From: Thermodesulfovibrionia bacterium
GTDB taxonomy: Bacteria; Nitrospirota; Thermodesulfovibrionia; UBA6902
Direction of reading: 5' to 3'
DNA length: 34,590 nt
NCBI GenBank assembly: GCA_947259645.1
Contig: CAMYND010000023.1
Span: forward strand, 1 to 34,590
Below the pieces are notes generated by a model. That model saw only the letters and a list, made by a program, of their open reading frames with translations. It made no database searches and had not been told where the DNA came from. The position numbers and the translations under genes were made by a program. Below are positions 9,846 to 34,590 of the stretch, one piece after another (position 1 is the first letter of the stretch; every line of letters starts with the position of its first letter).

Positions 9846-11657
9846 CTACTGCAGTAACTGCAGTGCTGCCTGCGGCAGTGAATTGGCCTGGGCCAACATA
9901 GCGGTTGCCGCCTGAACCATAATCTGGTTCCTGGTGAATTGAGCTGTTTCTACTGCAAAGTCAGCATCCAGGATTCGGCTCTGAGAAGCAGCTGAATTCT
10001 CAGCAGCAATCTCAAGGTTCGATACGGTAAACTCGAGTCCGTTCTGAACAGCACCGATTCTGGCCCTGATTGCATTAACATCGTCAAGGGCTGCGTCAAT
10101 AGTAAGCATAGCGGCCTCTGCGTTTGCCTGTGTTTCAATACTTATTGAAGCAACATTATATGTTGACACGTCTGCTGCTGCGCTTGAGCTGGTTCCTGTT
10201 GTTCCTGTCAAATCTTCCAGAGAGCTGGAGCTTGTCAGCGAAAAGGCTTCATCATCATTCAGCAGGACAGATGACCTGTAAATATAAATGTTGTTTGTTG
10301 CGGTACCGGACATATTTAAATATCCGTCAATCGTTGCATTTCTAACGTCAACTGCTATATTCCGACCGTCAGCTGCTGTCATAACAAGCTTCCCGCCGTT
10401 GTCAGTTTTTGCTGTAACGCCGGTTTCTGAGGTCTGATTGTTGATCGCTGTTATCAGCGAGCCGGTTCCATCACTTGCTGTTATGGTCACGGCTCCAATA
10501 TCAACACCGTTGATATAGACATCGCCTGCAGCCAATGTGCCTGCTCCTACTGCCAGTGATCCCGTAACATTCAGAGCCTGAGCCGTTGCAGTTACACCAC
10601 TGTTGACTGCATTAATAGCCGCTGCCTTTGCAACTGCACTGGACTCACCATTGTAGTTGTTTATGGCATTGGTAGTTCCGGATCCGAACATTGCAGATGC
10701 TGTACCGGTGAGACCGAATGCGGACAGTAAAAATGAATGACCAGTAGCGTTTGCATCTGTTCCTGAAACTGCTAAATTAAGATTTGCTCCCTTTTTGGCG
10801 TCAATGGCTATTATTGAACCATCAACTGCCCTTGCAGTAATGTTCGTGATACTAGCAGCATTGATTGCGGCAACAAGGCTAGTCACCATCTCATTACCTG
10901 TCAGAGCCGATGCTGTACCAACTGACAATGTGACAGCCGTACCATTAATGGCAAAACTGACAGTACCAACAGCTAACTGGCTATCAAGAGCTCCAGAACC
11001 CTTAACAGTCAGAACCGAGTACTGATCATCTGTTGAGTTCGTAGCAACAACATCAACGCCGTTTATTTTTATCTCACCGGTTCCAAGGTTCTCATCAACA
11101 GCGTTAGTAACGCCGTCTGCTATATCAGCTGTCAACTGCGCTCTTCCACCTATGGATTTCCCGCGAACGTCACCAATAGTAAAGGTAACTTTCTGAGAAA
11201 AGTTGGCCCCAACCTGGAAATACCTACTATTAAATGACCCGTCCAGAAGTTTTGTTGTATTAAATTCTGAAGTGTTTACAATTCTTGTGAGCTCTGTTGT
11301 AAGGTTAGTTGCTTCAACTGCGAGGTTTGCACGGTCAGCAGATGTGTTATCATCAGAAGCAGACTGGACCGTGAGCTCCCTCAGCCTTTGAAGGATGTTT
11401 GTTACTGTATTGATACCACCCTCAGCGGTTTGAACCAGGGTAATGGCATTGTTCGCGTTTCTGATCGCCTGATTGAGACCCCGTACCTGGGTACCCAGCT
11501 TCGTGGCGATGGCGAGACCGGCTGCATCGTCTGATGCCTTGTTGATTCTTAAGCCTGAGGACAACCTCTCAATAGACTTGCCCAGTCTGCTGTTAATTTT
11601 GGTTAAGTGTCTCTGGGCATTAAGTGAAGCGATGTTTGAGTTAACTGTTAAAGCCAT
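9846..11657 (-). CDS. fliC: Flagellin
   Basis: 603 residues, longer than the 498 of E. coli K-12 flagellin. The D0/D1 domains are intact. The N-terminus begins MALTVNSNIASLNAQRHL. Residues 90-99 (QRLRELTVQS) keep the conserved QRxREL segment recognised by TLR5 in enteric flagellins. The C-terminus has ENSAASQSRILDADFAVETA and ends SLPQAALQLLQ. The central part (about 175-500) is Ser/Thr/Ala/Gly-rich with Flagellin_IN-type units (INGVDVVA near 198, INGVDIGAVTI further on). It offers many hydroxyls for the O-linked sugar predicted from the neighbouring operon. No cysteine is present. AAGGAGG lies six bases before the ATG, inside a hairpin loop. Transcription is from a sigma-28 promoter (11874-11900), with a structured leader and strong terminator. 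Confidence 0.97.
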   Translation of the reverse strand: MALTVNSNIASLNAQRHLTKINSRLGKSIERLSSGLRINKASDDAAGLAIATKLGTQVRGLNQAIRNANNAITLVQTAEGGINTVTNILQRLRELTVQSASDDNTSADRANLAVEATNLTTELTRIVNTSEFNTTKLLDGSFNSRYFQVGANFSQKVTFTIGDVRGKSIGGRAQLTADIADGVTNAVDENLGTGEIKINGVDVVATNSTDDQYSVLTVKGSGALDSQLAVGTVSFAINGTAVTLSVGTASALTGNEMVTSLVAAINAASITNITARAVDGSIIAIDAKKGANLNLAVSGTDANATGHSFLLSAFGLTGTASAMFGSGTTNAINNYNGESSAVAKAAAINAVNSGVTATAQALNVTGSLAVGAGTLAAGDVYINGVDIGAVTITASDGTGSLITAINNQTSETGVTAKTDNGGKLVMTAADGRNIAVDVRNATIDGYLNMSGTATNNIYIYRSSVLLNDDEAFSLTSSSSLEDLTGTTGTSSSAAADVSTYNVASISIETQANAEAAMLTIDAALDDVNAIRARIGAVQNGLEFTVSNLEIAAENSAASQSRILDADFAVETAQFTRNQIMVQAATAMLAQANSLPQAALQLLQ

Positions 11658-13126: not shown

Positions 13127-13237
13127 CGGGATCTCTTTGTTAACAATGTTAAATACTTTTCAGACAACTTCGTTTCACGAGCATCACTTCTATTCATGTC
13201 ATGGACATTCTTTGAGAAACAATATAAATTGAATCAG

Positions 13238-13267
13238 ATAATGATGTATTTAACATCCTATTGTCAA
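13238..13267 (-). promoter_or_regulatory. Candidate sigma-70 promoter for the sulfotransferase gene
   Basis: On the minus strand a perfect TTGACA (13267-13262), an 18-base spacer, then CATTAT (13243-13238, four of six). It lies in the 268-base divergent region between the sulfotransferase and the plus-strand methyltransferase. A plus-strand candidate (TTGAGA at 13212, GATAAT at 13237, 19-base spacer) overlaps it. Confidence 0.4.
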
Positions 13268-13394
13268 ATTCCTTCACTCTCTTCTCCTGGGGAGACTACT
13301 TAAATGCGCCCGTTGCACCTTGCTTTTTCAAGTCACCCTGAGATATTTTATCCAGAGAATCGCTTTTAATTATATCATCTGTCTGGAGAGTACC

Positions 13395-15956: not shown

Positions 15957-16009
15957 CTTCATCCTCCCCAACAGCGGCTTATGTCTGAGTATTCTTGTAC
16001 ACTGATTTA

Positions 16010-20772: not shown

Positions 20773-22896
20773 TCAATTTCTGTCGAACTCTATGCTGACC
20801 TGCCATTTGCTCTTTCCCTTCCACATCCAGTGGCTTGTCTCATCCTGTTCTCCGAGTGAATACAGCAACCGCAGCAGAAAACTGTCATCAACGCTATAAA
20901 ACTGAATCATGGGCTGGGCTGCGAGGGGATGCCTGTGAGTCTTTATTGTGAGTGCTTTGTCTTTATCTCCGATTCTCACTATGCCTTCAGTAGCTCCAAG
21001 GCAGTGGGTCGCTGTGATCATAGAATGCATGACCGGATGTGAATGATCGAACTCATGTCCCTTCAAGTAATATTTTTCTTCAGGCCCCCCATTGTTGGTT
21101 GCATAATAGAGGGAGTCTTCGTCAAATGCCTCAGGGTTAAAGGTAAATATTCCGGCATGTAAGGAAGAATCTTTCAGTCCGTTCCACTCAAACTCATACT
21201 CTAATTCGATCTTTGGTCTGTCCGGGAAAACATGTATACTTTTACAGATGCTGCCCAGGGATGTCTTAACAGCAGATGAAAGTGATGTTACTCCCTCAGA
21301 CCCGAAACCATTCCCTTGAGTCACCATTTCAGTAACTCTTACTTTTTCAAGGTCAGTCACCTTGGAACTGCTCAGCGGCTGTACAATAACATGCCCTGAG
21401 TAAAGGTCCACGCCCCACGATATGTCATTAAAATATCCCTGGCGTAATGTGCCCACTAAAGGGATTTCTCCAGCTTCCCTGAACACCAGACTGTCAATGG
21501 ACATCCCTCTGCGGCTATTCACCGTCAGCATAACCGACGGAGTCTCCACCGCAACATAGTGAGCTTCCCCATCTGTACGGACGCGCCTCAGTTTTCTTTC
21601 GCAGGAAGAAACAGGACGCTCTGATCCAGATTTATTCATTTTTTTCAGCCTGTATTCGAGTATTCCCTGCCTCTTAATAAAACTGGAGTACTTCTCGTCT
21701 GTAATATGTGTCCTGAAATCACTCCCCCATAAAGAGCAGAGTTCCTTCCAGCACTCCTGAATTTCTTTATGGCAACAGTCATCTCTCGTGGTCAGTCTTT
21801 CCAGCATCTCGTACAAACCATAACAGGCGCCATTATTTCTCACATCATCTCTTCCTGTCAGGGCCCACCGGGTAATATTGTATTTAGCCTGTTTTTTTAC
21901 CGGTACAGGCTGAGCCGGAGTGCTGAGCTGAAGTTTATTAAAGCCCGTACTCTCACGACTGCTGAGGGTGTCGCCGGGAAGGACAAATGAATAATGATCT
22001 GATTTATTTAAAGTACCAATCAGTTTTTCATATCGTCTCCACTCATTGTGATCCTCAAGTTCAGCTTCAGCATGATACCGTCCCGGCCGGAAGTTAATTA
22101 TTTCCAGGTCATTCCCGTACATACAGAGGCTGCGGGTCTTCTCAGAAGTGTGAGTTTTCAGGTAGCTGATATAATCCCCTGATGATATTTCTCCATGAAT
22201 ATATCTCTGGAGCCGCTGAAAGGATACCGCATTGTTCCATATAACAGGGATTTCCCTCCCTGTTGCGCTGATTGCATACTGGGGATAATACTGCCACTCA
22301 GGATTCCAGAAGTTTTTATTGGCGGAATAAACATTATTCCACTCCATTATAATTGCTTCGAAACCTGCGTCAATATAAACATCAGCGAGGCCCGATGAAA
22401 AGGCCTGCTCATTGACATAGGCAATTTTTGGCCGTAGACCCAGACCCTCTTCATAAATATTCAGACCTGTCTCAAGATTTTTTTCATTAACCCTCTGTGG
22501 TACCAGCGGTCCTATGATCTGCGCGTAACCTGATGCCTGCAGCTCAGATAATCCCGCTTCAATAATCTGCTTTAGTTTAGCAACCCATGTTCTGTCAATT
22601 TCAGCAATTCTCAGCAGAGTGCTCCCTGTCATCTCTATGCTGAAGGGCACCCTGTATTTTTCATGGACTTCAAGGAGGGGCCAGTAGCAGTCATGAATTA
22701 CCCTCTTATGATCATCCTCATGAATAGAAGAGTAGGAAAGGTTACAATGAAAAACAGAATACAGGTTTAATGATGAGATGGTATTGTCCTTTGTGTTCAG
22801 TTCAGACCTGTTCCTGCAGGCGTTGTATTTTAATCTGCGTGAACCAGCCTGCCTGGCCAAACTTATATGATTATGCCCATCTTGAGTGCTTCTCAA
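20773..22896 (-). CDS. GH57-like (glycoside hydrolase family 57-related) protein
   Basis: 707 residues if begun at the TTG at 22896, which has GGAG nine bases upstream and directly follows the preceding stop. No ATG occurs before residue 89, inside the domain. The N-terminal half is a GH57/NodB-like barrel: SVFHCNLSYSSI (His50), PFSIEMTGSTLL, IGPLVPQRV, AYVNEQAFSSGL with Glu163 in the place of the GH57 nucleophile, and YGNDLEIINF (Asp263) as possible acid/base. The second half (about 430-707) is beta-rich and resembles the C-terminal domains of carbohydrate-active enzymes. The first 40 residues look unstructured. GH57 enzymes act on alpha-glucans or alpha-galactosides, but relatives in glycan clusters have unknown substrates. 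Co-transcription with two glycosyltransferases suggests a trimming or transfer step. Confidence 0.72.
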   Translation of the reverse strand: MRSTQDGHNHISLARQAGSRRLKYNACRNRSELNTKDNTISSLNLYSVFHCNLSYSSIHEDDHKRVIHDCYWPLLEVHEKYRVPFSIEMTGSTLLRIAEIDRTWVAKLKQIIEAGLSELQASGYAQIIGPLVPQRVNEKNLETGLNIYEEGLGLRPKIAYVNEQAFSSGLADVYIDAGFEAIIMEWNNVYSANKNFWNPEWQYYPQYAISATGREIPVIWNNAVSFQRLQRYIHGEISSGDYISYLKTHTSEKTRSLCMYGNDLEIINFRPGRYHAEAELEDHNEWRRYEKLIGTLNKSDHYSFVLPGDTLSSRESTGFNKLQLSTPAQPVPVKKQAKYNITRWALTGRDDVRNNGACYGLYEMLERLTTRDDCCHKEIQECWKELCSLWGSDFRTHITDEKYSSFIKRQGILEYRLKKMNKSGSERPVSSCERKLRRVRTDGEAHYVAVETPSVMLTVNSRRGMSIDSLVFREAGEIPLVGTLRQGYFNDISWGVDLYSGHVIVQPLSSSKVTDLEKVRVTEMVTQGNGFGSEGVTSLSSAVKTSLGSICKSIHVFPDRPKIELEYEFEWNGLKDSSLHAGIFTFNPEAFDEDSLYYATNNGGPEEKYYLKGHEFDHSHPVMHSMITATHCLGATEGIVRIGDKDKALTIKTHRHPLAAQPMIQFYSVDDSFLLRLLYSLGEQDETSHWMWKGKSKWQVSIEFDRN

Positions 22897-24141
22897 TTAT
22901 TCTTTCTCCGTCACTATATTAATCGTTCTGTAGACCCATTCTGCCCGCTCATCGACTTCCTGCCGAGATGCACCGACTGCAACAAAAACCCCAAACCGTT
23001 TTGCATGATTCACCGGTGATGGGACAAGATCGCCCGCTTCATACCAGAATTCCAGCTTTTTAATCCATTCCTTACTCAAAACATCCTCAACTCCTTCGAC
23101 GCGAACCAGACGTCCCGGTTCAGGGAAGAAGTAGCGGTTTACAACCGCCTGACAATATTTCGGCTTTAAGCTCTCAAGCTCCGGATCTTTATTCATGGCG
23201 ATCCTCGCAGCAGTTTCTACGTAATTCACTCCCGTACTTAAGGGGACCAGACTTTCACAGAGATCACCACCGCTGAGGCGCGCTGCCATCTCAATCATAA
23301 AGGGGCCTTTGTTCGTAAGCACAACATCCCCCTTCACCACGCCATCAGTAATATCCAGTGCCAGTGCCGCTTTTTCTACCAGATCTTCAACAGCGGTTCT
23401 TTCTTCCAAGGTCACTGTGCTCGGTGCCCATCCGCCGTTTTCAATGATGTGGGGAGCATATACTTCCCTCATCTCATAGTTCCTGTCAACGAACCCGGGG
23501 GTATAGGCCCTGCCTTTATACATTATTGTTTCTGTGCTGATCTGCGGACCATCCAGATATTCTTCAACCATAACCTGGCCGCAGAATGATTCTGAAAGGG
23601 ATTTATCAAAAAGAGAATGGGGGTCATCTTTCTCTGTCAGCCGGAAGACACCTCGTGCTCCGGAACGGTCCACAGGCTTAATTATAAGTGGATAGCCCCG
23701 CTCATTAACTATTTCACAAAGCTCATCAGGGGAGTTAACCAGCTTAAACCAGGGCACAGGGACCCCACGGTCCCTGAAACGGCATTTCATTTCATACTTG
23801 TGCGTTGTCAACAAGGCAGACTCCATTGATATGCTTGGAGTGCCAATGTGCTCTGCCAGAGCTGTTACAACATGGGGAATATCACTGCCCATCACGAACA
23901 CTCCACTTATGTAATGGCCTTTGTCTCTATAGTCATCAATATATTTCTTCAGGGCAGCTACGTCCTTTGTGCTGATTACTGCGTGGTCATCAGCCAGCGC
24001 AAACCCCGGGGCATCAGGGTTTATGTCTACCGTTAATACGTGCAATCCCATTGACTTCGCCGTACGAATCGCAAAAAGCTGATCAGCTCCAGCTCCTAAT
24101 AACAGTACTGTTTCTTTTTGGGCAAGAGCCATACTATCCAA
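22897..24141 (-). CDS. ATP-grasp ligase, CarB/DdlB-like fold
   Basis: 414 residues. A Rossmann-like pre-ATP-grasp domain opens with VLLLGAGADQLFAIRTAKSMG. The ATP-grasp core has LIIKPVDRSGARGV (Lys155), VEEYLDGPQISTE (Glu193/194) and the metal-binding segment FMIEMAARLSGGD (Glu284). This layout resembles carbamoyl-phosphate synthase-like and amino-acid ligases, which activate a carboxylate as acyl phosphate and join it to an amine. Here it could make an amide on an amino sugar or build a small acyl substituent (inference). The start is ambiguous: TTG at 24141 has GGAGGAG six bases upstream, while ATG at 24132 sits 15 bases from it. Either way the gene is tightly coupled to the SDR gene (stop 24134). 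Confidence 0.85.
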   Translation of the reverse strand: MDSMALAQKETVLLLGAGADQLFAIRTAKSMGLHVLTVDINPDAPGFALADDHAVISTKDVAALKKYIDDYRDKGHYISGVFVMGSDIPHVVTALAEHIGTPSISMESALLTTHKYEMKCRFRDRGVPVPWFKLVNSPDELCEIVNERGYPLIIKPVDRSGARGVFRLTEKDDPHSLFDKSLSESFCGQVMVEEYLDGPQISTETIMYKGRAYTPGFVDRNYEMREVYAPHIIENGGWAPSTVTLEERTAVEDLVEKAALALDITDGVVKGDVVLTNKGPFMIEMAARLSGGDLCESLVPLSTGVNYVETAARIAMNKDPELESLKPKYCQAVVNRYFFPEPGRLVRVEGVEDVLSKEWIKKLEFWYEAGDLVPSPVNHAKRFGVFVAVGASRQEVDERAEWVYRTINIVTEKE

Positions 24142-24898
24142 GATATGCTCCTCCGCTGACGCTCAGGACCTGTCCTGTCATATATTCCTGCTCATCAGAA
24201 GCGAGAAATACGCAGGCACTGGCAACATCTTTCAGCTGTCCCGGCCGTTTCAGAAGAGTCAGGTTAATAATGTCCTGACCGGCCTGGCTGGACAGTTCAT
24301 CTGCTGTCTGGTCTGTGAACATGATACCGGGGGCGACCGCATTGACAAAAATGTTATGTGGAGCTCCATATCGCGCTACAACTTTTGTAAGGGTGTTTAA
24401 CCCGGCCTTGGACGTTGCATAGTGTACTGTCTTTGGCCCGTGGTATTGTCCAGCAACAGATGAGATATTAATTATTCTGCCGCTATTCTGTTTCTTCATG
24501 TAGGGAAAAACCTCCTGACAGCAGATAAATGGACCCTTCAGATTGATTTTCATTATATGATCCCAGTCATCATCAGTAATTTCTTCAAAATACCCTCGCT
24601 TATTGATTCCGGCATTGTTCACCAGTATGTCAATCCTGCCAAATTCTGCATGAGCGGCCTGAAAAGCTTCACGAACACTTTCTCGGTCACTGACATCCAC
24701 CCGGGCCAATAATGCCTCTCTCCCTCCCTCGCGAATCTGCTTTATTACTTCTTCCCCCAGCGCAGCTTCACTGTTATACGTAACAACTACCTTTGCCCCC
24801 TGCCTTGCGTATTCGAGGGCAATTGCCCTGCCAATGCCCCGTGAAGATCCAGTGACAAGAGCGACTTTTCCGGCTAGCCGACTTTCATCATTTCCCAT
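24134..24898 (-). CDS. Short-chain dehydrogenase/reductase (FabG-like)
   Basis: 254 residues. The classical SDR pattern is complete: TGSSRGIG at 16-23 for NAD(P), NNAG at 94-97, Ser146/147 and YxxxK (Tyr160, Lys164). The C-terminus [10 protein letters not shown] is FabG-like. It reduces or oxidises a keto/hydroxyl group; being next to a DXS-like carboligase, it could reduce the ketone such an enzyme forms (inference). I start at the second methionine (24898) because AAAGGAG lies nine bases before it; the ATG at 24907 abuts the same ribosome binding site. It overlaps the end of the DXS-like gene by 25 bases. Confidence 0.88.
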
Positions 24899-26655
24899 GC
24901 CGGCCATCTCCTTTTAATTTCCCGCAACACACCTGTGGCATCAAGTCCATAAGCTGAACATAATTCTTCATGAGAACCGGGCTCAACAAATATACAGGGA
25001 AGACCGATGCGCAGTATTTCGCATTCCACGGCATGGTCTGAAGCGAGGGCCGCAATTGCACTTCCAACTCCGCCATCGAGCACACCCTCTTCAAGAGTTA
25101 CCACATGCCTTGACCTGCCCATCAGTTCCAGAAGCTGCTCCTCGGGAAGGGGCTTCAGATATCTGAGGTTTACCAATCCGGCGTCTATTCCCCTGCTTCT
25201 TAAATCAGCCGTTACTTCCTGCGCTACCCTGAACTTATGTCCCACGGTGATAAGGAGCAGGTCTTTTCCTGTCTGTACTTCCTGTGCCTTCTGGAACGAG
25301 TCCAGAGGCTCTGCAAGCACTGAGCTGTCAAATTCATCGACAGGGCCATAGGGCATGCTGATAATAGTGGGCCCTGTTAAATTCTTCAGGTTGTCGCGGA
25401 CCATCCTCTCCAGCTCGAAGCGGTCTTTCGGATACATCATTCGCAGGTTCGGTAATCCGCGCATGTAGGCAAAATCATAAATACCATGATGTGTCGGGTT
25501 GTCATAACCGGAGAATCCTGTACGGACATTCAGTATCAGTGTTGGAAATTCCATGAAACATATGTCATGAATCAGCTGGTCAAACGCCCTTTGCATGAAC
25601 GTTGACTGGTAAAAAATGACCGGTTTGCATCCCTCAAGGGCAAAGCCCGCAGTCATTGTCATGGCATGCTGCTCTTCCATCCCCGGATCGAAACAGCGCT
25701 CCGGGTAAAGATCAAAGACCGGCTGCAAACCAGTTGCGTAGAGCGTAGATGCGGTTATGCATACGATCTTTTCATCCTGCTCCATCTCTTCCTTTACTGT
25801 GCCCGCTGCTACATCCTGGTAACCTGTAGACACAAAGTCTCCTTTGCTTGCCCCTGTTTCAGGATCAAAGGGAAAGGAGAAATGAAGTTTGTAGGGATGT
25901 TCGTCTGCTATGGGAAGACCATACCCTTTGACTGTTTTAACATGTACAACAGGAACTCGACTGGACTCTTTAGCCTTTTTAAACGATTCGACCAGCTGCT
26001 CAATGTTGTGACCGTCCACCGGACCAATATAGTCAAACCCGAGTGATGTAAAGAGTGTCTCTTTATCGGTGCTTTCGGTAGTTCGGCTTTGCAGGTAGTT
26101 ATGGAGTCCTCCGAACCCCGGACTTATGGCGTATCCGTTATCGTTCAGAACAATGACAGTGTTTACATCCTCAACAGCAACATGGTTAAGCGCTTCCAGA
26201 GCCAGGCCTTCGCAAATGGCGCCGTCACCTATAACTGCTATTGAATAATCTTTTTGACCTTTGAGCTTTTTTGCCAGGGAGATGCCCAGTGCTATTGAAA
26301 TGGAGGTCCCTGCGTGTGAGGCCTCGATAATGTCATGTTCACTCTCGGTCCTTGTTATGAAGCGGTTCATGCCGCCATAGGTATTCAGTGTCGGAAACAT
26401 CCTGGCGCGCCCCGTAAGTATCTTGTGTGTATACCCCTGGTGTCCTGTGTCCCAAATAATCTTGTCTCGTGGTGAGTCAAAAATATAGTGCAGTGCAACG
26501 GTCATGTCCACAGCCCCGAGGTTCGTGCCGATATGACCTCCTGTATCTGATATATTATTTATGATGAATTGCCGGATCTCATCTGAGAGATGATTGAGTT
26601 CTTCCAGAGAAAGATGCTTGATCTTCTCAGGTGTCAGTGATTCAAGTGGTATCAT
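24874..26655 (-). CDS. DXS-like transketolase (thiamine-diphosphate carboligase)
   Basis: 593 residues, close to the 620 of E. coli 1-deoxyxylulose-5-phosphate synthase. The three-domain order is kept. ThDP/Mg binding is seen in [15 protein letters not shown] (143-157) and NDNGYAISP (171-179). Active-site His41 and His72 are in DTGGHIGT and [10 protein letters not shown]. The catalytic glutamate is in [14 protein letters not shown] (327-340). Arg378, Asp385 and Arg399 are retained. The DXS motif RYPRG, which supplies one arginine for glyceraldehyde-3-phosphate, is replaced by SMPYG at 433-437. A changed acceptor is therefore likely. The start at 26655 is chosen for AAGGAG six bases upstream; an ATG at 26685 has no site. 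It heads a tight SDR/ATP-grasp/GH57 run in a glycan operon. Confidence 0.85.
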
Positions 26656-26777: not shown

Positions 26778-27671
26778 TCATATTTTTTTTGCATAGAGAA
26801 TTACTTCTCGGCCTATTCCCATCTCTGCAAACTGCCGGTACAGTTTTCTCTTTATGTCTGATAACCCGGCTGCAGTCAGGTTCATTTCCATTGTCTTGCG
26901 TTTCATGTGACAGGCTCTGCCGAGATCATCATTCCCTACATAGTTGTCCCCCATAAGCAGGAACATATCCATCGGGAAAGTGGCTTCGCTTACAATAATT
27001 TCAAATCCATTGTTCATGACAAGCTTTTTCAATGAATCCAGATTGAAGTAATTAATATGATGAGGAGGCGCGATCCACCAGGGTTTATAATTACAGGCAT
27101 TCTTCAGTGCCTTCTGAAAATGGCTGTATTCATTCGGGACAATAGCGCAGAGCAGACCCCCTGGCTTCAGCATAGAATAGCAGAGCTGAACAAGGTCAGC
27201 GGGACCAGGTATATGTTCAAGGACTTCGCTCATATGAATCACATCGAATTGACCAAGACCCTCCGCCGTGTATCTATTCAGAAAACTGTTGACTATATAT
27301 AGTCCAAGAGACCGGCTGTGCTCAGACGCCTGTTCGGAAGGCTCAATGCCTGCAGTTTTCCAACCCCGCTCTTTCCCGTGAAGCAGAAAATAACCGGGTC
27401 CGGATCCAACATCAAGTATCCTCCTGCGTTCAGGCGGAAGGTGCTCTTCAAAAGTTTCATACCGTTCTTTGTAGCAGATATTCCACCACACAAGGTCCTC
27501 TTCTGATCTCGCGATGTACTCAGGTTTTTCAACTGAATAGTATTCCTCTCTGTAAGTCTTTTCCAGATCTGCCTCAGATGGTACGGGATCAATATGAACA
27601 AACCCGCACTCTTCACAGTCAATCACATTGTACTCATTGCATCGGTCAAGTATGTTTCCCTTGTGCATCAT
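26778..27671 (-). CDS. SAM-dependent methyltransferase (Methyltransf_23-like)
   Basis: 297 residues. A half zinc-ribbon (Cys11, Cys19, Cys22 in RCNEYNVIDCEECGF) precedes a class I methyltransferase core with ILDVGSGPGYF (85-95), GIEPSEQA, VIHMSEVLEHIPGPADLV and LKPGGLLCAIVPNE. The target is unknown; in this operon an O- or N-methyl group on the sugar or its acyl side chain is plausible (inference). The frame is open further upstream, but GAGG precedes the ATG at 27671 by five bases. That start overlaps the PseG-like stop by four bases. The 122 bases between this gene and the DXS-like gene are the largest gap in this stretch of the operon; they are purine-rich on the coding strand and hold no clear gene. 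Confidence 0.85.
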   Translation of the reverse strand: MMHKGNILDRCNEYNVIDCEECGFVHIDPVPSEADLEKTYREEYYSVEKPEYIARSEEDLVWWNICYKERYETFEEHLPPERRRILDVGSGPGYFLLHGKERGWKTAGIEPSEQASEHSRSLGLYIVNSFLNRYTAEGLGQFDVIHMSEVLEHIPGPADLVQLCYSMLKPGGLLCAIVPNEYSHFQKALKNACNYKPWWIAPPHHINYFNLDSLKKLVMNNGFEIIVSEATFPMDMFLLMGDNYVGNDDLGRACHMKRKTMEMNLTAAGLSDIKRKLYRQFAEMGIGREVILYAKKI

Positions 27672-28717
27672 ATATTCCTCTGACTCATAGCTGTCATACC
27701 AGCACTGCTGCTGACTCCGCAGACATTGCATATAACACGTGCTATGCGCTTTGCTCCATTACCGTCTATAAGGGCTCTTCCTTCTCTAGCCATTTTTTCC
27801 AGTAAATCATTATTTTGCAAAAACAGTGCCACTGAATCGCTGATCTCATTGTCCTTGACATCTTCGTAATATCCGAGCGGAATACCCGCTCCACGATTGC
27901 CAAATGCATCCATATTTTCTTTATCATTTCTATAGTTAGCAATAATAAGCGAGGGCACCCCCATAAAGGCGAGCTCATACAGGGTTATCCCGAAGGCTGT
28001 AAACGCTATGTCTGTTTGATTCATCAGTAATGCCATTTTTTTGACATCAGCCTTATGGATCAGCCTCTCTTTCCCGATCAATTGCCCCACTGCTGAAGCG
28101 TCTCTCATAGAAGGACCTGCAACAACTGTCAAAGTGATACCTTCCATGCCTTTCAGCGCTCTGACAGTCTGCATGGTCAAGTCATTGGGATCAGATCCAC
28201 CCATACTTACCAGCACCCTGAGCCCTGTTTCTCGCGGAGGTTTCTCGATGCGTCTCGCCCTGATAAAATGATGATTCAGGGGAAAGTATTCCAGCCCTGC
28301 CAGAATATTCTTCTGTTTTGTGGACAGATTCTTGATGGTACTATTTATGAGAGAGGGGATTATTACACAATCAGGTTCACCCGGAGCAGCCGTAACTTTG
28401 TCAATGAAAATAACTTTTAAACCATTAGCCTTAAAGTATCGGACTTCTTCTGATATCTCATTTTTCGTATCAAAGATGACCCCATCAAAGTGCCTTAACA
28501 TCTGGAGCTTTTGAAATTCATCCTCACCTGTAACAACACTGAACCCAGCCATTATTATTGTTTCTACTACAGCCTCTTCCTGATTTACCTTGAAGGTTAC
28601 ATCTAAGCCGAATTCCTGAAGTGACTGGGCAATAGAGAGAGATCTCATGACATGGCCCATACCGATATTTTTCCCGCCGTCAGTCCATATCAGGATTCTT
28701 TTGCTGCTCTTGTTCAT
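27668..28717 (-). CDS. pseG: PseG-like UDP-sugar hydrolase (SpsG family)
   Basis: 349 residues with a GT-B fold. The N-terminal motif GGKNIGMGHVMRSLSIAQ carries the catalytic histidine (His22) used by PseG for water activation. The C-terminal half has VLVSMGGSDPNDLT and FTAFGITLYELAFMGVPSL for UDP binding. PseG removes UDP from UDP-2,4-diacetamido-2,4,6-trideoxy-beta-L-altrose to give the sugar that PseI condenses with phosphoenolpyruvate. Assignment to the family is firm, but the exact stereochemistry of the substrate cannot be read. It lies 17 bases downstream of the aldo/keto reductase gene and overlaps the following methyltransferase gene by four bases. Confidence 0.85.
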   Translation of the reverse strand: MNKSSKRILIWTDGGKNIGMGHVMRSLSIAQSLQEFGLDVTFKVNQEEAVVETIIMAGFSVVTGEDEFQKLQMLRHFDGVIFDTKNEISEEVRYFKANGLKVIFIDKVTAAPGEPDCVIIPSLINSTIKNLSTKQKNILAGLEYFPLNHHFIRARRIEKPPRETGLRVLVSMGGSDPNDLTMQTVRALKGMEGITLTVVAGPSMRDASAVGQLIGKERLIHKADVKKMALLMNQTDIAFTAFGITLYELAFMGVPSLIIANYRNDKENMDAFGNRGAGIPLGYYEDVKDNEISDSVALFLQNNDLLEKMAREGRALIDGNGAKRIARVICNVCGVSSSAGMTAMSQRNI

Positions 28718-28734: not shown

Positions 28735-29676
28735 TTATCCGATAGACCAGTTGGCAGGGTTAACAAGGGCCTCTTCGTCCAAAGCCAGGTCTTCAGCAAT
28801 TGAAAGCATATCTTCAGTAAACATAGTATCTGAAGCGGCCCGCACCGCGTCTTCCAGCTCCTCACTGCTGTTCACTCCAACAAGAACCGAATGGGCTAAA
28901 CCGGAGGAGAGGCAAAATTTCAGGGCTGTTTCAGGCAGTCGTTCCCATGATGTTGAAAACCGTTCGATAATCCTTTCTGTTGCGTAGCGAAGTGCCTGCA
29001 GCTCATCAGGCAGAAACTGCGCTCTTGCAGTCAAAACACCTTTGAGTAAAGCAGACCGGTTCATTATCCCTGTCTCTGATGCTCGTGCAAGGGGTAGTAT
29101 ATTTTTTCCCATACGCTGGTCAAGAAGACTGTACGCCACCTGAAGAACATCGTATGAACCTTGCTCTATAACCGCTCTCGCGGCAGCCTCTCCATACACT
29201 GATGCACCGAGAAACCGTATTTTCCCGGACTGGCGTGCCTTTAAGAGTATTTCTGTTACTTCACCCTCGTTGATCATTTCTTCTGTTGCATTATGAATCT
29301 GAACAATGTCCAGTGTTTCCCTTTGAAGCATACGAAGGCTCTTGTCAATGGAATCGTTCATTGTATCGCGCATCACGGTACCTGTTAACGCTGTACCGTT
29401 ATTTTGTGGAACAGAAACTTTTGTCGCTATGATACATTTCTGTATATGCCCGACTGCATCACCGAGCAACTTTTCACTGGTTCCGTAATTGGGGGCCGTA
29501 TCAAATAAATTAATACCCAGGTCAACAGCACGATGAATAATGCGCATGGCATTTTCCCTGCCAGGCTGGTTTAACTGGCCTGCCTTCTTGATTCCATACT
29601 CAAGACCGAGCTCCACTGTACCAAGTGACAGAGATGATACCTTTAATCCTGTTTTTCCAAGTTGACGATATTCCAT
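28735..29676 (-). CDS. Aldo/keto reductase
   Basis: 313 residues, an NADPH-dependent AKR barrel. The catalytic tetrad is visible: Asp59 and Tyr64 in FDTAPNYG, Lys86 in ATKV and His128 in VQIHN. N-terminal MEYRQLGKTGLKVSSLSLGT is typical. It would reduce an aldehyde or ketone; AKRs are not part of the canonical pseudaminic acid pathway. The ATG follows the preceding stop with no gap. It sits between the GSAM-like aminotransferase and PseG-like genes, so its substrate is probably an intermediate of the same sugar (inference). Confidence 0.9.
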   Translation of the reverse strand: MEYRQLGKTGLKVSSLSLGTVELGLEYGIKKAGQLNQPGRENAMRIIHRAVDLGINLFDTAPNYGTSEKLLGDAVGHIQKCIIATKVSVPQNNGTALTGTVMRDTMNDSIDKSLRMLQRETLDIVQIHNATEEMINEGEVTEILLKARQSGKIRFLGASVYGEAAARAVIEQGSYDVLQVAYSLLDQRMGKNILPLARASETGIMNRSALLKGVLTARAQFLPDELQALRYATERIIERFSTSWERLPETALKFCLSSGLAHSVLVGVNSSEELEDAVRAASDTMFTEDMLSIAEDLALDEEALVNPANWSIG

Positions 29677-30954
29677 CTACTTCCGTGACCGGTACACTGA
29701 GCCGATCTTTTTACCTTTCATATATCCGTCAATGTCTCCTTCATCAACCGCCTGTTTTACAATTATCAGCGCTTCATATGAGGCATCAAGTGTTCTGCTG
29801 ATATCAGCATCAGAATGTGAAAATGATATATAGACCGGACCGCCGAAAAGGATTCCCCGTTCAACAGTTTCCTGTAGAAACAGGCTTTTCATATCAGTTG
29901 ATTCATTGCCGCTCTGGTCTCTGAACACCAGTCCTGAGCGGACTGGGTTGCCGGGGATATCCAGATTGACGCCTATCTCATCCCGTATTTTTTCCAGTCC
30001 GTCTCTCAGTTTTTTGCCCTGCTTCCAGATATAGTCGATTACATTTTTCTCCTTTATTTCTTTTATGGTCTCTATCGCAGCAGCAAGGGCGGTTGTTTCC
30101 CCGGAATATGTCATGGAGAAAAAAATGTCATTCAGTTCCCTCATAAACTCTTTCTTCCCGGCAATTACTGATATAGGCATTCCATTGGCCATGCCTTTCC
30201 CAAAGCAGGCAAGGTCAGGCATGATCCCGTAGTATTCCTGGGCCCCTCCGGCTGCGTAGCGAAAACCTGTGCATATTTCATCAAGAATAAAGACAGCACC
30301 ATTTGCATGGGCAATATCAAGTGCATTCTGGAGAAAATTGTCTTCCGGTTCTGTGCCGGGCTGTTCCATGATTACAGCGGCAATCTGTTCGGGGTATTCT
30401 GCAAATATCTTACGCAGTGTATCAGGCCGGTTGTATTCAAATGAATGAACAACTGATTTGTTCCATTCAGGTATGCCATTGTTCAGTGATGTTGTCACAG
30501 CATACCAGTCATGACAGCCGTGGTATCCGCAGAAAGCTATATGGTCCCTGCCTGTGCTGGCACGTGCGATCCTCAGAGCAGCCATGGTCGCGTCTGCGCC
30601 GTTTTTTCCGAACCGCACCATCTCGGCGCAGGGAACAGTATCAATAATGAGTTCTGCCAGTTCCAGCTCCAGGGGGTTCATCAGCGTAAATGTTGTTCCT
30701 TTTTTAAGCTGCTTAATGACCGCCTGCGTAATGCGCGGATAATCATAGCCCAGCAGAATAGGACCAAGGGCCATGGGGTAGTCAATGAACTCGTTGCCGT
30801 CAACGTCCCACACGTGGGCACCTTTGCCATAATCCAGATATTTTGGATAGACACCATCGACAAACTGGTCAGGGCCCTTGCTCAGCGTCTGAGTCCCCCG
30901 GGGGATAATTTCAACCGCCCTTTTCCATAGCCTTTCCGATTCTGTTATATTCAT
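29677..30954 (-). CDS. Class III aminotransferase, glutamate-1-semialdehyde aminomutase-like
   Basis: 425 residues. The PLP lysine is Lys253 in ACFGKGMANGMPIS. The cofactor-binding Asp225-Glu226 are in FILDEICTGFR, and GYHGCHDW is the phosphate-cup segment. The closest relatives I recognise are HemL-like proteins that recur in surface-sugar clusters rather than tetrapyrrole HemL, because the neighbours are all sugar genes. The role would be to add an amino group to a keto intermediate, possibly in the sugar side chain or an acyl substituent (inference). The start overlaps the cytidylyltransferase stop by four bases (ATGA). Confidence 0.85.
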   Translation of the reverse strand: MNITESERLWKRAVEIIPRGTQTLSKGPDQFVDGVYPKYLDYGKGAHVWDVDGNEFIDYPMALGPILLGYDYPRITQAVIKQLKKGTTFTLMNPLELELAELIIDTVPCAEMVRFGKNGADATMAALRIARASTGRDHIAFCGYHGCHDWYAVTTSLNNGIPEWNKSVVHSFEYNRPDTLRKIFAEYPEQIAAVIMEQPGTEPEDNFLQNALDIAHANGAVFILDEICTGFRYAAGGAQEYYGIMPDLACFGKGMANGMPISVIAGKKEFMRELNDIFFSMTYSGETTALAAAIETIKEIKEKNVIDYIWKQGKKLRDGLEKIRDEIGVNLDIPGNPVRSGLVFRDQSGNESTDMKSLFLQETVERGILFGGPVYISFSHSDADISRTLDASYEALIIVKQAVDEGDIDGYMKGKKIGSVYRSRK

Positions 30955-31739
30955 GGTTTTTTCAGATCGAGATACTTTTCATCATCAGTCAGTGATTTAA
31001 GGTATCCCTCATTTCTTATTATGTGAGAATTAAGAGCCATAAGCTGAGGTTCCTTCTCCAGAAGGTCCAGGATTTCCTGTGTCAAAAAGATCTCCTCTTC
31101 CCTATAAAGCCGGTTAAATATCTCCTCCAGAAACCTGAGGTCTGCCTGTTCATCCAGAGTCCACCTGTGATGAGACAGTCCTTTGAATTTATTGAGTCTT
31201 CCGGTCCTGTATTTTTCCGGATGCTTTTCCATATAAGGCCCTACGTGCTCTCTTTCTGAAGGCAGACTGGCGTTCTTCCATGTATTTTTCAGGACCGGAT
31301 ATGAGAATATAACGCAGTCAAGTCCATCAGGAAACTCATTGCCAAGACCATAGAGATCGTAATTTCCTTCAAAATACCCTGCTACGACTTCATCAACAAC
31401 ACAGGGATCAATGAGGGGGCAGTCAGATGTTATTCTTACAATATGGTCCACGCTGAACTTTGTGGCAGCCTGATAATAACGGTCAAGAACATCCTGCTCG
31501 CTTCCCCGGAAACAGGTTACTTTATAGTCTCTGCAGAATTCTTCTATCACCGAATCTTCGTTGTTTATGGTAGTAGCGATGATTATTTCGTCAATATTTT
31601 TTGAATAGCCGAGCCTGTTGATAACATGCCAGAGAGCCGGCTTTCCGGCCAGAGGTTTCATTATTTTTTCAGGCAGACGGGTAGAACCCATACGGGCCTG
31701 AATTATGGCAGATACTTTTTCATTCGACTGATTTAGCAC
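30951..31739 (-). CDS. pseF: SpsF/PseF-like cytidylyltransferase
   Basis: 262 residues. The N-terminal nucleotide-binding motif AIIQARMGSTRLPEKIMKPL and the segment VRITSDCPLIDPCVVDEV mark the CMP-sugar cytidylyltransferase superfamily, SpsF branch. Next to a NeuB-type synthase it should activate the nonulosonic acid with CTP, giving the CMP-sugar donor for the glycosyltransferases at the operon's end. The start is a GTG overlapping the synthase stop by seven bases, with GGAAGGAT upstream. The family is certain; the symbol is by context and the sugar could be legionaminic or another nonulosonate. Confidence 0.85.
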   Translation of the reverse strand: MLNQSNEKVSAIIQARMGSTRLPEKIMKPLAGKPALWHVINRLGYSKNIDEIIIATTINNEDSVIEEFCRDYKVTCFRGSEQDVLDRYYQAATKFSVDHIVRITSDCPLIDPCVVDEVVAGYFEGNYDLYGLGNEFPDGLDCVIFSYPVLKNTWKNASLPSEREHVGPYMEKHPEKYRTGRLNKFKGLSHHRWTLDEQADLRFLEEIFNRLYREEEIFLTQEILDLLEKEPQLMALNSHIIRNEGYLKSLTDDEKYLDLKKP

Positions 31740-32770
31740 TCGATATCCTTCCAGAGGATCAGTTCATGTGATTTGATATTACGGGATGATCTCTTTCCTA
31801 TCACTGTCTCCATCTCTCCTGGTGACAGACCACTGGCATGTCGTACGAGCTTCAGCATTTCTTCTTTCATGACCGTGCCTCTCGGAATATCAGCTGAGGC
31901 ATAAATGCTCCTCCTCGCCCCGAATCTTTCTCCCATTTCATCTTCTACAGGCCTTTTGATTCCATCCCCGAGGGCTTTTTCAAGGTTTCTGGTCTCTTCC
32001 ACCATTTTCTTGAACTCATCCGGTTCCAGCGCATAGGGGTGGTCAGGCCCCTTCAGTTCTCTGCTCAGCGTTATATGTTTTTCAATTATGGAGCCTCCCA
32101 ATGATACCGCGGCAAGTGGGACTGTCCAGCCGGGCGTGTGGTCTGAGTAACCAACAGGAAGGCCAAATGCTTGTGACATGGTTACCATAGCCCGTATATT
32201 TGAATGCTCAAACCGTGGCGGGTACAATGAGGCGCAATGGAGGACCGCTATCTCTTTAACACCCTCTGACCTGATAAGATGAATTGCCCGCTCCACTTCT
32301 CCAAGATATGCTGCCCCCGTAGAGATAATCATCGGCTTCTGATAGTGAGCGACCTGTTTTAACAGTGGTTCATTTGTAAGATCTCCTGAGGCGATCTTAA
32401 ATGCGGGCACATGAATGGAATCAAGCAGGGCAGCCCTGCCGCTGTCAAAGGGGGCTGATATAAACAGTATCCCCTGTGTATCAGCATACTCCTTAAGCTG
32501 TGCGTGCCATTCTTCCGGAAGGGTCAAGCGCTCTATAACGGGATATGCAGGGTGAGGAACCCACGTTCCATTATCTGCCTTATAGGGATTAAAGAGACCT
32601 TCAGCAGTAAAGGATTGAAACTTTACCGCCTCTGCTCCTGCCTCCCTGGATGCTGCGATGAGCTCCTTAGCCCTTTCGATGCTCCCGTCATGATTAGACC
32701 CGATCTCAGCAATAAAAAAGGCCGGCTCTCCCTTACCAACAGCTCTACTGTCTATATGTATCTTCTCCAT
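31733..32770 (-). CDS. pseI: NeuB-family nonulosonic acid synthase (PseI-like)
   Basis: 345 residues. The TIM-barrel has FFIAEIGSNHDGS, AVKFQSFTAEGL, FKIASGDLTNEPLL, MIISTGAAYLGE and GYSDHTPGW. The phosphate-binding HITLSR is followed by the C-terminal SAF (antifreeze-like) domain (about 285-345, GARRSIYASADIPRGTVM). The enzyme condenses phosphoenolpyruvate with a six-carbon amino sugar to form a nine-carbon acid in the cytosol. PseI, LegI and NeuB cannot be told apart securely by eye; PseI is favoured by the PseG-like gene nearby. It lies three bases after the Gfo/Idh gene, with CAGGTAAGAG upstream. Confidence 0.88.
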   Translation of the reverse strand: MEKIHIDSRAVGKGEPAFFIAEIGSNHDGSIERAKELIAASREAGAEAVKFQSFTAEGLFNPYKADNGTWVPHPAYPVIERLTLPEEWHAQLKEYADTQGILFISAPFDSGRAALLDSIHVPAFKIASGDLTNEPLLKQVAHYQKPMIISTGAAYLGEVERAIHLIRSEGVKEIAVLHCASLYPPRFEHSNIRAMVTMSQAFGLPVGYSDHTPGWTVPLAAVSLGGSIIEKHITLSRELKGPDHPYALEPDEFKKMVEETRNLEKALGDGIKRPVEDEMGERFGARRSIYASADIPRGTVMKEEMLKLVRHASGLSPGEMETVIGKRSSRNIKSHELILWKDIEC

Positions 32771-32773
32771 CTC

Positions 32774-33841
32774 TTACCTGCTCAACACCTTGAGCGTTTT
32801 ATCTTCCATTGGAAGCAAAACCCTTTCTCCACTATTTCTGTCTGATTGATGAACAGCAAGGGCGATTTCAAGGGCAGCCCTGCCGTCTTCTGCTGTGCTC
32901 ATGTTGCTGGCTCTTCCCTCTATAGCGTCAAGAAGATTGTTCGCCGCCTCTGTCCAGATGTTTTTTGATTTATCAGCAACAACCTCTTGCCTCTGGAGCT
33001 CAATAAGCCCGCTCTCTGTAGGGCTTTCTCTCGCGCAATAAACCTCAAGCAGTCTGTTTCCGATCTTTATCCTGCCTTCAGAGCCAATGATGTCAAATTC
33101 AAAAATGAAATACCCCTTGCTGTCGCCATGCACTGTCGCGTAGAGTCCGCTTTTGAAATATATCAGCGCGTATCCGCCGACATCCCGGGTTATCAGCTGG
33201 TCCGCTGAATCAAAGGCATTGTGATGGGAAATAGAGGAATTATCCTCCAGGTGCCCTTCTACCCAATCTGCGTCTCCAAAAAAATACCTGAGTACATCAA
33301 AGGCATGGGTACCTGTATGAAGCATGCTGCCGCTAAAGTGGCATACAGCTGAAATCGGCTCGCCGATTGCGCCCTCTGCTATCAACTTCTTTGCCCGTTG
33401 ATAGTCCGGATCCCATCTTCTCATGTGAGATACAATGATTTCAGCACCATACTGATCAGACAAGCTCACCATCTCATCAGCCTCTCTTAATGATGCTGCA
33501 AAGGCTTTTTCACACCAGATACCTTTTACTCCGGCCCTGATGCAGTCACAGACCATTCGGTATCTCTCATTCGCGTAGGCGCAAATGCTCACGATATCCG
33601 GCTTCTCTTTTTTAAGCATTTCTTCATAGTCATGGTACAGATTCTCAACATGGTACTGCTGCGCAAAATCATGAAGCCTGTCTGACCTGCAATCAGCTGC
33701 AGCCGATATTTCTACTCTCTCGCAGGCCTGGTATGCTCCGGCATGAGAGCAGGGCTTTTCCGGTATGAGTGGGTCGTTGTCAAGAAGCCAGGCTACTCTG
33801 CCACAGCCGATTACTGCAGCTCTGTATCTTTTACTGCTCAT
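32774..33841 (-). CDS. Gfo/Idh/MocA family oxidoreductase
   Basis: 355 residues. The N-terminal Rossmann fold has VIGCGRVA (10-17). The EKP motif that normally ends the NAD domain is EKA here (111-113). The C-terminal domain has GTHAFDVLRYF, with His179 and Asp182 as likely catalytic residues. These enzymes oxidise or reduce a sugar carbon, often preparing a keto group for a DegT aminotransferase; here a DegT gene is directly upstream and overlaps by four bases (ATGA). The substrate is unknown, and this step is not part of the canonical pseudaminic acid route, which uses PseB. Confidence 0.88.
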   Translation of the reverse strand: MSSKRYRAAVIGCGRVAWLLDNDPLIPEKPCSHAGAYQACERVEISAAADCRSDRLHDFAQQYHVENLYHDYEEMLKKEKPDIVSICAYANERYRMVCDCIRAGVKGIWCEKAFAASLREADEMVSLSDQYGAEIIVSHMRRWDPDYQRAKKLIAEGAIGEPISAVCHFSGSMLHTGTHAFDVLRYFFGDADWVEGHLEDNSSISHHNAFDSADQLITRDVGGYALIYFKSGLYATVHGDSKGYFIFEFDIIGSEGRIKIGNRLLEVYCARESPTESGLIELQRQEVVADKSKNIWTEAANNLLDAIEGRASNMSTAEDGRAALEIALAVHQSDRNSGERVLLPMEDKTLKVLSR

Positions 33842-34590
33842 TTTCCGCTCTTACAGGAGCAAAGCTTCAGGGCCTTTGAAAACTCATCTATGACTCGCTC
33901 TCTATCGGGCCTCTCAAGGAGCGTGTGCATTGGCAGTGAAATTGCCCTCTCGAAATACTCTTCTCCATGGGGGCACAGCCCTTCCCTGTAACCCATCTGT
34001 TTATAGTAGGGGAATAAATAGACCGGGATATAATGGACCTGAACACCAATGCCCTGGTCTCTTAAATGTCTGAAAACCTGGTCCCTCATTCCATTCCTTA
34101 ATTGAAGGACATACAGATGCCTGCTGTGATTACCCTGACTATCCGGGGGGAGGATTACCCTGTCTTCCATCTCCATAAAGGCAGTATTGTATTCTTTTGC
34201 AATATCCTCTCTTTTTTCCAGAAACCTGTCGAGTTTTGCCAGCTGGCTTATTCCGAGGGCGCATTGAAGGTCATTCAGCCTGTAGTTATAGCCAAGAACC
34301 TGCATTTCATAATAATAGTCCTCATGGTGCGCAGTGAACCCGGAATTGTCTTTCGTGATACCATGAGTCCTGAGCATCAACAGCCGCTCATACAGTTCTG
34401 GGTCATTGGTTGTTATCATTCCCCCCTCTGCTGTTGTCATATTTTTCAGGGGGTGGAAACTGAATACCGTCATATCTGAATAGCTACAGCTGCCGACTTT
34501 CTCACCCGAAGCATATCTCGCGCCATGAGCGTGGCAGGCGTCTTCTATAATAATCAGTTCGTTCTCATCTGCGATCTTTTTGATTGCCTC
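33838..34590 (-). CDS. DegT/DnrJ/EryC1 aminotransferase, C-terminal part (N-terminus off the window)
   Basis: The frame stays open to the right edge; 250 residues are visible and the N-terminal part is missing. The visible part begins before IIEDACHAHGARY, which corresponds to the PLP-ring-stacking region of the family. It contains the PLP lysine in SFHPLKNMTTAEGGMITT. Sugar aminotransferases of this family include PseC, which makes the 4-amino group of the pseudaminic acid precursor, and the relatives QdtB and WbpE. PseC is a reasonable guess in front of PseI, PseF and PseG homologues, but the adjacent Gfo/Idh gene also fits a WbpB/WbpE-like pair making a 3-amino sugar. The internal ATG at 34473 is not the true start. 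Confidence 0.88.
   Translation of the reverse strand, partial: EAIKKIADENELIIIEDACHAHGARYASGEKVGSCSYSDMTVFSFHPLKNMTTAEGGMITTNDPELYERLLMLRTHGITKDNSGFTAHHEDYYYEMQVLGYNYRLNDLQCALGISQLAKLDRFLEKREDIAKEYNTAFMEMEDRVILPPDSQGNHSRHLYVLQLRNGMRDQVFRHLRDQGIGVQVHYIPVYLFPYYKQMGYREGLCPHGEEYFERAISLPMHTLLERPDRERVIDEFSKALKLCSCKSGK

What the first reader, a model, noticed from the sequence alone, without database searches (positions are those of the whole stretch)
24874..26655. DXS-like enzyme with altered acceptor site inside a glycan operon
All thiamine-diphosphate and catalytic residues I could place are kept, and so is Arg399. The RYPRG motif, whose arginine (R478 in E. coli numbering, from memory) helps bind glyceraldehyde-3-phosphate, has become SMPYG. 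With an SDR and an ATP-grasp gene directly downstream, it may perform an acyloin-type condensation of pyruvate with another aldehyde, as YerE does in yersiniose synthesis, rather than make isoprenoid precursor.
Basis: partly seen in the sequence, partly recalled or inferred. Interest (0 to 1): 0.65.

Follow-up and report, generated by a model that had tools for sequence, protein, structure and literature searches.

The report
DXS paralogue in flagellin glycan operon
A copy of the isoprenoid enzyme DXP synthase has lost the residues that recognise its normal substrate and sits in an operon that builds flagellar sugars, so it probably joins pyruvate to a different molecule to make a sugar side chain rather than isoprenoid precursor.

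Summary
Window 24874-26655 (-) encodes a 593-aa protein with DXP-synthase (DXS) fold and ThDP/catalytic residues, but with two of the three residues of the glyceraldehyde-3-phosphate pocket lost (E. coli R478 to Tyr, Y392 to Gln). It has also lost R99, R475, D419, G428, M346 and Y288. R420, D427, H431, H49, H299 and E370 remain. None of 97 other aligned DXS proteins lacks Y392, R99 or R475, or lacks a basic residue at 478. No other copy was found in 230 genomes of its class. The operon is a flagellin nonulosonate operon (PseC, NeuB, cytidylyltransferase, PseG-like, methyltransferase, SDR, ATP-grasp, GH57-like, Maf). The SDR/ATP-grasp/GH57-like module recurs in two distant loci, with a split transketolase or a KduI/IolB protein in place of the DXS-like gene. 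Shewanella sfmABCDE (published; required for flagellin modification) puts an IlvB-like ThDP enzyme there. Best reading: a ThDP carboligase making a keto acid that the SDR reduces and the ATP-grasp ligase couples to an amino sugar. The substrate is unproven. Solved DXPS-like enzymes that lack some of the same residues exist (PDB 9KPQ), so this is a new variant, not a new kind.

The parts
24874..26655 (-). DXS-like ThDP carboligase (593 aa; longest ORF to 26685) with altered acceptor pocket
24134..24898 (-). SDR ketoreductase (FabG-like); its RBS lies inside the end of the DXS-like gene, 25-nt overlap (translational coupling)
   Evidence: 45% identical to Solidesulfovibrio FabG in the parallel module
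22897..24141 (-). ATP-grasp ligase with L-amino-acid-ligase C-terminal domain (LAL_C2), putative carboxylate-amine ligase
   Evidence: nearest solved relatives include L-amino acid ligases; 42% identical to the Solidesulfovibrio module protein
20773..22896 (-). GH57-like protein, a rare marker of this module (found elsewhere only in G262 and Solidesulfovibrio pDCAR1)
26778..27731 (-). SAM methyltransferase (Methyltransf_23), 41% identical to the module methyltransferase of Solidesulfovibrio
27668..28717 (-). PseG-like nucleotide-sugar hydrolase (TIGR03590 134.6 bits, below cut-off)
28735..29676 (-). aldo/keto reductase
29677..30954 (-). GSA-like class III aminotransferase
30951..31739 (-). cytidylyltransferase (CTP_transf_3)
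31733..32770 (-). NeuB/PseI-type nonulosonate synthase
32774..33841 (-). Gfo/Idh/MocA oxidoreductase
33838..34590 (-). PseC-type DegT aminotransferase, cut by the contig end
16010..18787 (-). Maf-type (MptE-like) flagellin glycosyltransferase with TPR
9846..11657 (-). flagellin, the probable glycosylation target

Best explanation
The gene encodes a former DXP synthase turned into a glycan-pathway carboligase. Shown: DXS fold; intact ThDP and catalytic residues; loss of two of the three glyceraldehyde-3-phosphate pocket residues and of R99 of the lactyl-ThDP-holding network; a separate normal dxs; and a place in a flagellin nonulosonate operon, immediately before and overlapping an SDR and followed by an ATP-grasp ligase. 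Inferred: it decarboxylates pyruvate (or a similar 2-oxo acid) on ThDP without waiting for GAP and adds the acyl anion to an aldehyde that carries a carboxylate, for which the kept R420 could be the anchor. The SDR reduces the resulting keto acid to a polyhydroxy acid, which may then be O-methylated. The ATP-grasp ligase couples it to the free amine of a pseudaminic-acid-type sugar, a position that PseH would normally acetylate. Maf then puts the sugar on flagellin. Likelihood: not the isoprenoid DXP synthase about 0.9; ThDP carboligase of the glycan pathway about 0.75; acid-for-ATP-grasp scheme about 0.5.
For: Residues. R420, R478 and Y392 are the conserved GAP pocket and R478A raises Km(GAP) to 1.4 mM (PMC11019550). 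H431-D427-R99-H49-H299 stabilises lactyl-ThDP, and Y288Q cuts kcat/Km for pyruvate 1249-fold (PMC12633525). Separate dxs. Absent from the rest of the class. Contig belongs to this genome: MotA 77% to the same genus. Slot swapping: Solidesulfovibrio pDCAR1 has MT-SDR-split transketolase-MT-ATP-grasp-GH57-PseB-PseC, and G262 has MT-KduI/IolB-SDR-ATP-grasp-GH57-Maf-flagellin. The GH57-like marker was found in no other place. Shewanella sfmABCDE (NeuB, IlvB-like TPP enzyme, SDR, methyltransferase, ATP-grasp) is needed for a Pse-type modification with a nitrogen-free, O-methylated C9-C11 substituent (PMC3765264). No PseH above cut-off in the genome. Split transketolases lie beside GSA-AT/SDR/NeuB in 4 of 21 nonulosonate loci examined, and near GSA-AT in a fifth.
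Against: No enzymatic or glycan data exist for this organism. The query is a singleton with a very long branch (2.63), so selection on the altered site cannot be tested from orthologues. Y288 loss lowers pyruvate use in E. coli DXS, so the donor could also have changed. Curated models still name it dxs (TIGR00204 540 bits). The Shewanella ThDP enzyme is from another superfamily, and deleting its ATP-grasp gene gave a milder phenotype than the other four. The contig ends inside PseC, so a PseH could be in a gap.
Confidence: 0.55

Rival explanations
1. C-branching enzyme like YerE: it adds a two-carbon acetyl unit from pyruvate to a keto group of a nucleotide sugar, and the SDR reduces the branch.
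For: ThDP enzymes of three superfamilies (YerE-like, alpha-keto acid dehydrogenase type, transketolase) do or are proposed to do this, and acetyl branches are reduced by ketoreductases (PMC12247030, PMC4753412). The PseB product in such pathways is a 4-keto sugar. The SDR is coupled to the gene.
Against: It does not explain the conserved ATP-grasp ligase, nor the KduI/IolB protein in the same slot of G262. In the analogous Shewanella modification the Pse core looks normal and the extra mass is a separate substituent.
Confidence: 0.2
2. A second DXP synthase that feeds 1-deoxyxylulose 5-phosphate (or a 1-deoxy sugar) into the glycan or a cofactor.
For: Automatic models call it dxs and its fold and catalytic core are those of DXS.
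Against: R478 and Y392 are lost, with R475, R99 and other conserved residues. R478A in E. coli raises Km(GAP) to 1.4 mM. The genome has a canonical dxs.
Confidence: 0.08
3. A ThDP enzyme without carboligation: it turns pyruvate or another 2-oxo acid into an aldehyde or acid for the operon.
For: E. coli R99A, D427A and H431A variants make a two-carbon product (PMC12633525), and this protein has lost R99.
Against: Acetate or acetaldehyde are available from central metabolism, and the coupled SDR suggests a new ketone (inference).
Confidence: 0.12

Closest known systems
DXP synthase (Dxs, EC 2.2.1.7; TIGR00204)
   Same: Whole fold, domain order, ThDP motif and catalytic residues; 33-42% identity
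   Different: GAP pocket residues R478 and Y392, plus R99, R475, D419, G428, M346 and Y288 are lost; short 'linker' as in some natural short forms; in a glycan operon beside a separate dxs in the genome
DXPS-like subfamily with solved structure 9KPQ (NCBIfam NF008968 / PRK12315)
   Same: Independently lost R99, R478 and M346, and in some members Y392, while keeping H49, E370, H299 and H431
   Different: Only 33-35% identity; score 480 is below the NF008968 cut-off of 510; that subfamily loses R420 and D427, which the window protein keeps; the two plasmid members viewed are not in glycan operons
Shewanella sfmABCDE flagellin-modification operon (SfmB, IlvB-like ThDP enzyme)
   Same: Nonulosonate synthase + ThDP enzyme + SDR + methyltransferase + ATP-grasp, next to Maf and flagellin modification
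   Different: The ThDP enzyme is annotated ilvB (acetolactate-synthase type), not DXS
Solidesulfovibrio carbinolicus pDCAR1 Pse cluster
   Same: Homologous MT, SDR, ATP-grasp and GH57-like genes (41, 45, 42 and 33% identity) with PseB and PseC
   Different: The ThDP enzyme is a two-subunit (split) transketolase
YerE / yersiniose branch enzyme
   Same: A ThDP enzyme working on a bacterial surface sugar, with pyruvate as donor
   Different: Decarboxylase superfamily and a flavoprotein; acceptor is a keto sugar; no ATP-grasp partner known to me

Membership tests
DXP synthase (functional) | DXS fold with ThDP motif and catalytic H49, H299, E370, D427, H431 | tested here: met
DXP synthase (functional) | GAP pocket R420, R478, Y392 | tested here: not met
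   R420 kept, R478->Y and Y392->Q; pocket defined in PMC11019550
DXP synthase (functional) | Full H431-D427-R99-H49-H299 lactyl-ThDP network | tested here: not met
   R99->N; network from PMC12633525. D. radiodurans has Lys at this place, Asn is not basic
DXP synthase (functional) | Forms DXP from pyruvate and GAP | not testable with these tools
   needs assay
DXPS-like subfamily (NF008968 / 9KPQ) | Score over curated cut-off and clustering by identity | tested here: not met
   480 < 510 bits; 33% identity to 9KPQ against 50-59% among the members compared
YerE-like enzymes | Decarboxylase-superfamily ThDP flavoprotein | tested here: not met
   Domain order DXP_synthase_N / Transket_pyr / Transketolase_C; superfamily of YerE from PMC12247030
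sfm-type flagellin nonulosonate side-chain module (working name) | ThDP enzyme + SDR + ATP-grasp + methyltransferase with NeuB-type synthase and Maf | tested here: met
sfm-type flagellin nonulosonate side-chain module (working name) | Flagellin carries a nonulosonate with a non-acetyl N-substituent | not testable with these tools
   needs mass spectrometry of the flagellin

The most novel reading that the evidence does not exclude
A DXS-derived carboligase joins pyruvate to a uronate-like aldehyde acid to build a long polyhydroxy acyl chain, which an ATP-grasp ligase attaches to a flagellar pseudaminic-type sugar. It would be a further ThDP lineage recruited into a slot that other bacteria fill with acetolactate-synthase-type or transketolase-type enzymes.
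Probability: 0.3. Interest if true: 0.7.

Novelty: new variant of a known kind. Interest (0 to 1): 0.52.

Why it matters
If true, a DXP synthase scaffold has been re-aimed at a new acceptor by changes in the pocket that inhibitor work on this antibacterial target studies (R478, Y392, R99). That gives a natural test of which residues set acceptor choice and substrate gating. It also suggests that one biosynthetic slot in flagellin sugar modules is filled by unrelated enzymes, which makes the unknown Shewanella-type substituent open to prediction. Finally, it is a likely mis-annotation case: NCBI models call it dxs.

Tried and rejected
A search for close relatives of the DXS-like protein failed in own-phylum samples, the whole class, GTDB contigs by peptide pattern, plasmids, phages and viral contigs; best identities were about 38-42%, to ordinary DXS where checked. 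Membership in the 9KPQ/PRK12315 subfamily was considered and rejected. The idea that this is the only dxs was rejected. A contaminant contig was judged unlikely. Apparent 920-970-aa DXS fusions in relatives were a read-through artefact in the two examined. A literature search for DXS with flagellin glycosylation found nothing. No Rfam family matched in the window.

Full report
CHECK OF THE OBSERVATION. The gene is real. Residue numbers given in query coordinates are those of the 603-aa ORF. The protein has the full DXS domain order, scores 540 bits with TIGR00204 (cut-off 466), and its AlphaFold2 model (mean pLDDT 85.9) matches DXS crystal structures with TM-scores of about 0.8-0.9.

ACTIVE SITE. 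I aligned it with 97 other DXS proteins, including E. coli K-12 Dxs and the genome's own canonical dxs. At 29 of 132 columns conserved in at least 90% of the others the query differs. By E. coli number: R99 is Asn, Y288 is Leu, M346 is Thr, A369 is Glu, Y392 is Gln, D419 is Val, G428 is Asn, R475 is Ser, R478 is Tyr. R99, M346, Y392, D419, G428 and R475 are invariant in the other 97; position 478 is R in 93 and K in 4. M. tuberculosis DXPS naturally has Lys at 478 and a normal Km for GAP (PMC9068908), so a basic residue is what matters there. Kept are H49, H80, H299, E370, R398, R420, D427 and H431. Published work names R420, R478 and Y392 as the conserved GAP pocket, gives R478A a Km for GAP of 1.4 mM (PMC11019550), gives H431-D427-R99-H49-H299 as the network that holds lactyl-ThDP until GAP arrives, and finds Y288Q 1249-fold worse in kcat/Km for pyruvate (PMC12633525).

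THE REFUTER. The genome has a separate canonical dxs at G000:C10, between a polyprenyl synthetase and tlyA. It groups with its own family's dxs genes, while the window protein sits alone on the longest DXS branch (2.63 against a median of 0.19; quick tree, position unsure). No second copy of the DXS-like gene was found in 230 genomes of the class or in the phylum sample. The contig belongs to this genome: its MotA is 77% identical to that of the same genus.

THE OPERON. On the minus strand, in order: PseC-type aminotransferase (cut by the contig end), Gfo/Idh, NeuB/PseI-type synthase, cytidylyltransferase, GSA-like aminotransferase, aldo/keto reductase, PseG-like hydrolase, methyltransferase, DXS-like, SDR, ATP-grasp with LAL_C2 domain, GH57-like, TPR/GT9, Maf-type protein, radical SAM, then (past other genes) flagellin, FlaG and FliD. 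The SDR's own RBS lies in the end of the DXS-like gene and the two overlap by 25 nt, so they are probably translationally coupled. No PseH above cut-off was found in the genome and no GNAT in the window by a phmmer search. PseB was also not found, presumably because the contig ends just before it.

THE SAME MODULE ELSEWHERE. The GH57-like protein is a rare marker. In 396 phylum genomes it occurs only here and in G262, and in 72,556 plasmids only in Solidesulfovibrio carbinolicus pDCAR1. In all three places it directly follows the ATP-grasp gene. In pDCAR1 the order is MT - SDR - transketolase N - transketolase C - MT - ATP-grasp - GH57-like - PseB - PseC, with identities to the window of 41% (MT), 45% (SDR), 42% (ATP-grasp) and 33% (GH57). 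In G262 the order is MT - KduI/IolB (PF04962) - SDR - ATP-grasp - GH57-like - Maf - flagellin. Thus one slot, next to the SDR, is filled by a DXS-like enzyme, a split transketolase or a KduI/IolB-type sugar-acid isomerase. In Shewanella oneidensis the published sfmABCDE operon has NeuB, an IlvB-like TPP enzyme, an SDR, a methyltransferase and an ATP-grasp protein; deletions of the first four give flagellin of unmodified size (PMC3765264). The Shewanella glycan is a Pse with a single N-acetyl group plus a nitrogen-free, O-methylated substituent of C9H16O7, C10H18O7 or C11H20O7. Independently, split transketolases lie beside GSA-aminotransferase, SDR and NeuB genes in four of 21 nonulosonate loci examined in the phylum, and near the aminotransferase in a fifth.

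MECHANISM. What the slot enzymes can share is a product that is a keto acid: KduI/IolB enzymes make keto sugar acids (established knowledge of those families), and ThDP carboligases make acyloins. The SDR would reduce the ketone and the ATP-grasp ligase would join the acid to an amine, taking the place of PseH acetylation. For the DXS-like enzyme this means pyruvate as likely donor and an aldehyde acid as acceptor, with R420 kept as a possible carboxylate anchor. As a check of plausibility only: a uronate (C6H10O7) plus a two-carbon unit (C2H4O) plus H2 minus water is C8H14O7, and adding one, two or three CH2 gives exactly C9H16O7, C10H18O7 and C11H20O7. Other decompositions fit as well, and the Shewanella enzyme is not DXS-like, so this is inference and not evidence for the window.

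COMPARISON. It works like a ThDP carboligase of a flagellin sugar module (inferred). It is in the DXS family by descent but fails the GAP-pocket and gating features that define DXP synthase. A solved DXPS-like enzyme (9KPQ) and its plasmid relatives from Cetobacterium and Lactobacillus have lost R99 and R478, and partly Y392, in the same way. The window protein is not of that subfamily (33% identity to 9KPQ, below the NF008968 cut-off, R420 and D427 kept), but the precedent means the kind is known. A 2025 review of ThDP enzymes that form tertiary alcohols, including sugar branching, lists decarboxylase, alpha-keto acid dehydrogenase and transketolase types; a search of its text for DXPS found nothing. 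A DXS-type enzyme in a glycan pathway would therefore be a new variant.

LIMITS. The protein is a singleton, so conservation of the altered site cannot be shown. All functional steps after the residue analysis rest on synteny and analogy. The genome-contig scan used six exact peptides and may have missed relatives. The 97 comparison proteins were partly chosen for similarity to the query.

Noticed in passing
L171, L176, L177, L178 (G236, G268, G328, G210): Compact clusters with cytidylyltransferase - transketolase N - transketolase C - GSA-like aminotransferase - SDR - NeuB, with a KdsC-like phosphatase between SDR and NeuB in the two read closely (L171, L177; judged by eye): possibly an uncharacterised ulosonic acid pathway that uses a split transketolase.
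   Followed up: partly
L134 8367-8978 (G262): A KduI/IolB-family protein takes the place of the DXS-like gene between the methyltransferase and SDR of an otherwise syntenic flagellin glycan operon.
   Followed up: partly
window 20773-22896: GH57-like protein always directly after the ATP-grasp gene in the three loci known; function unknown, could act on the finished glycan or be a deacylase.
   Followed up: partly
L199 3971-5728 and L200 3959-5698: Plasmid-borne Cetobacterium and Lactobacillus 'dxs' genes are of the 9KPQ DXPS-like type (R99, R420 and R478 all lost), so they are probably mis-annotated as DXP synthase.
   Followed up: partly
G047, G056, G058, G059, G060 (same class), and G002, G018 (same family): No DXS-type match better than transketolase level (E about 1e-26 to 1e-30), although several of these genomes are 99-100% complete; DXS may be absent or very divergent there.
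   Followed up: no
window 33838-34590: The contig ends inside the PseC-type gene and no PseB above cut-off was found in the assembly; the operon start is probably lost in an assembly gap.
   Followed up: partly
window 12308-15971: Sulfotransferase-like gene, a long methyltransferase on the + strand and a B12-binding radical SAM gene between flagellin and Maf: possibly further glycan decoration.
   Followed up: no
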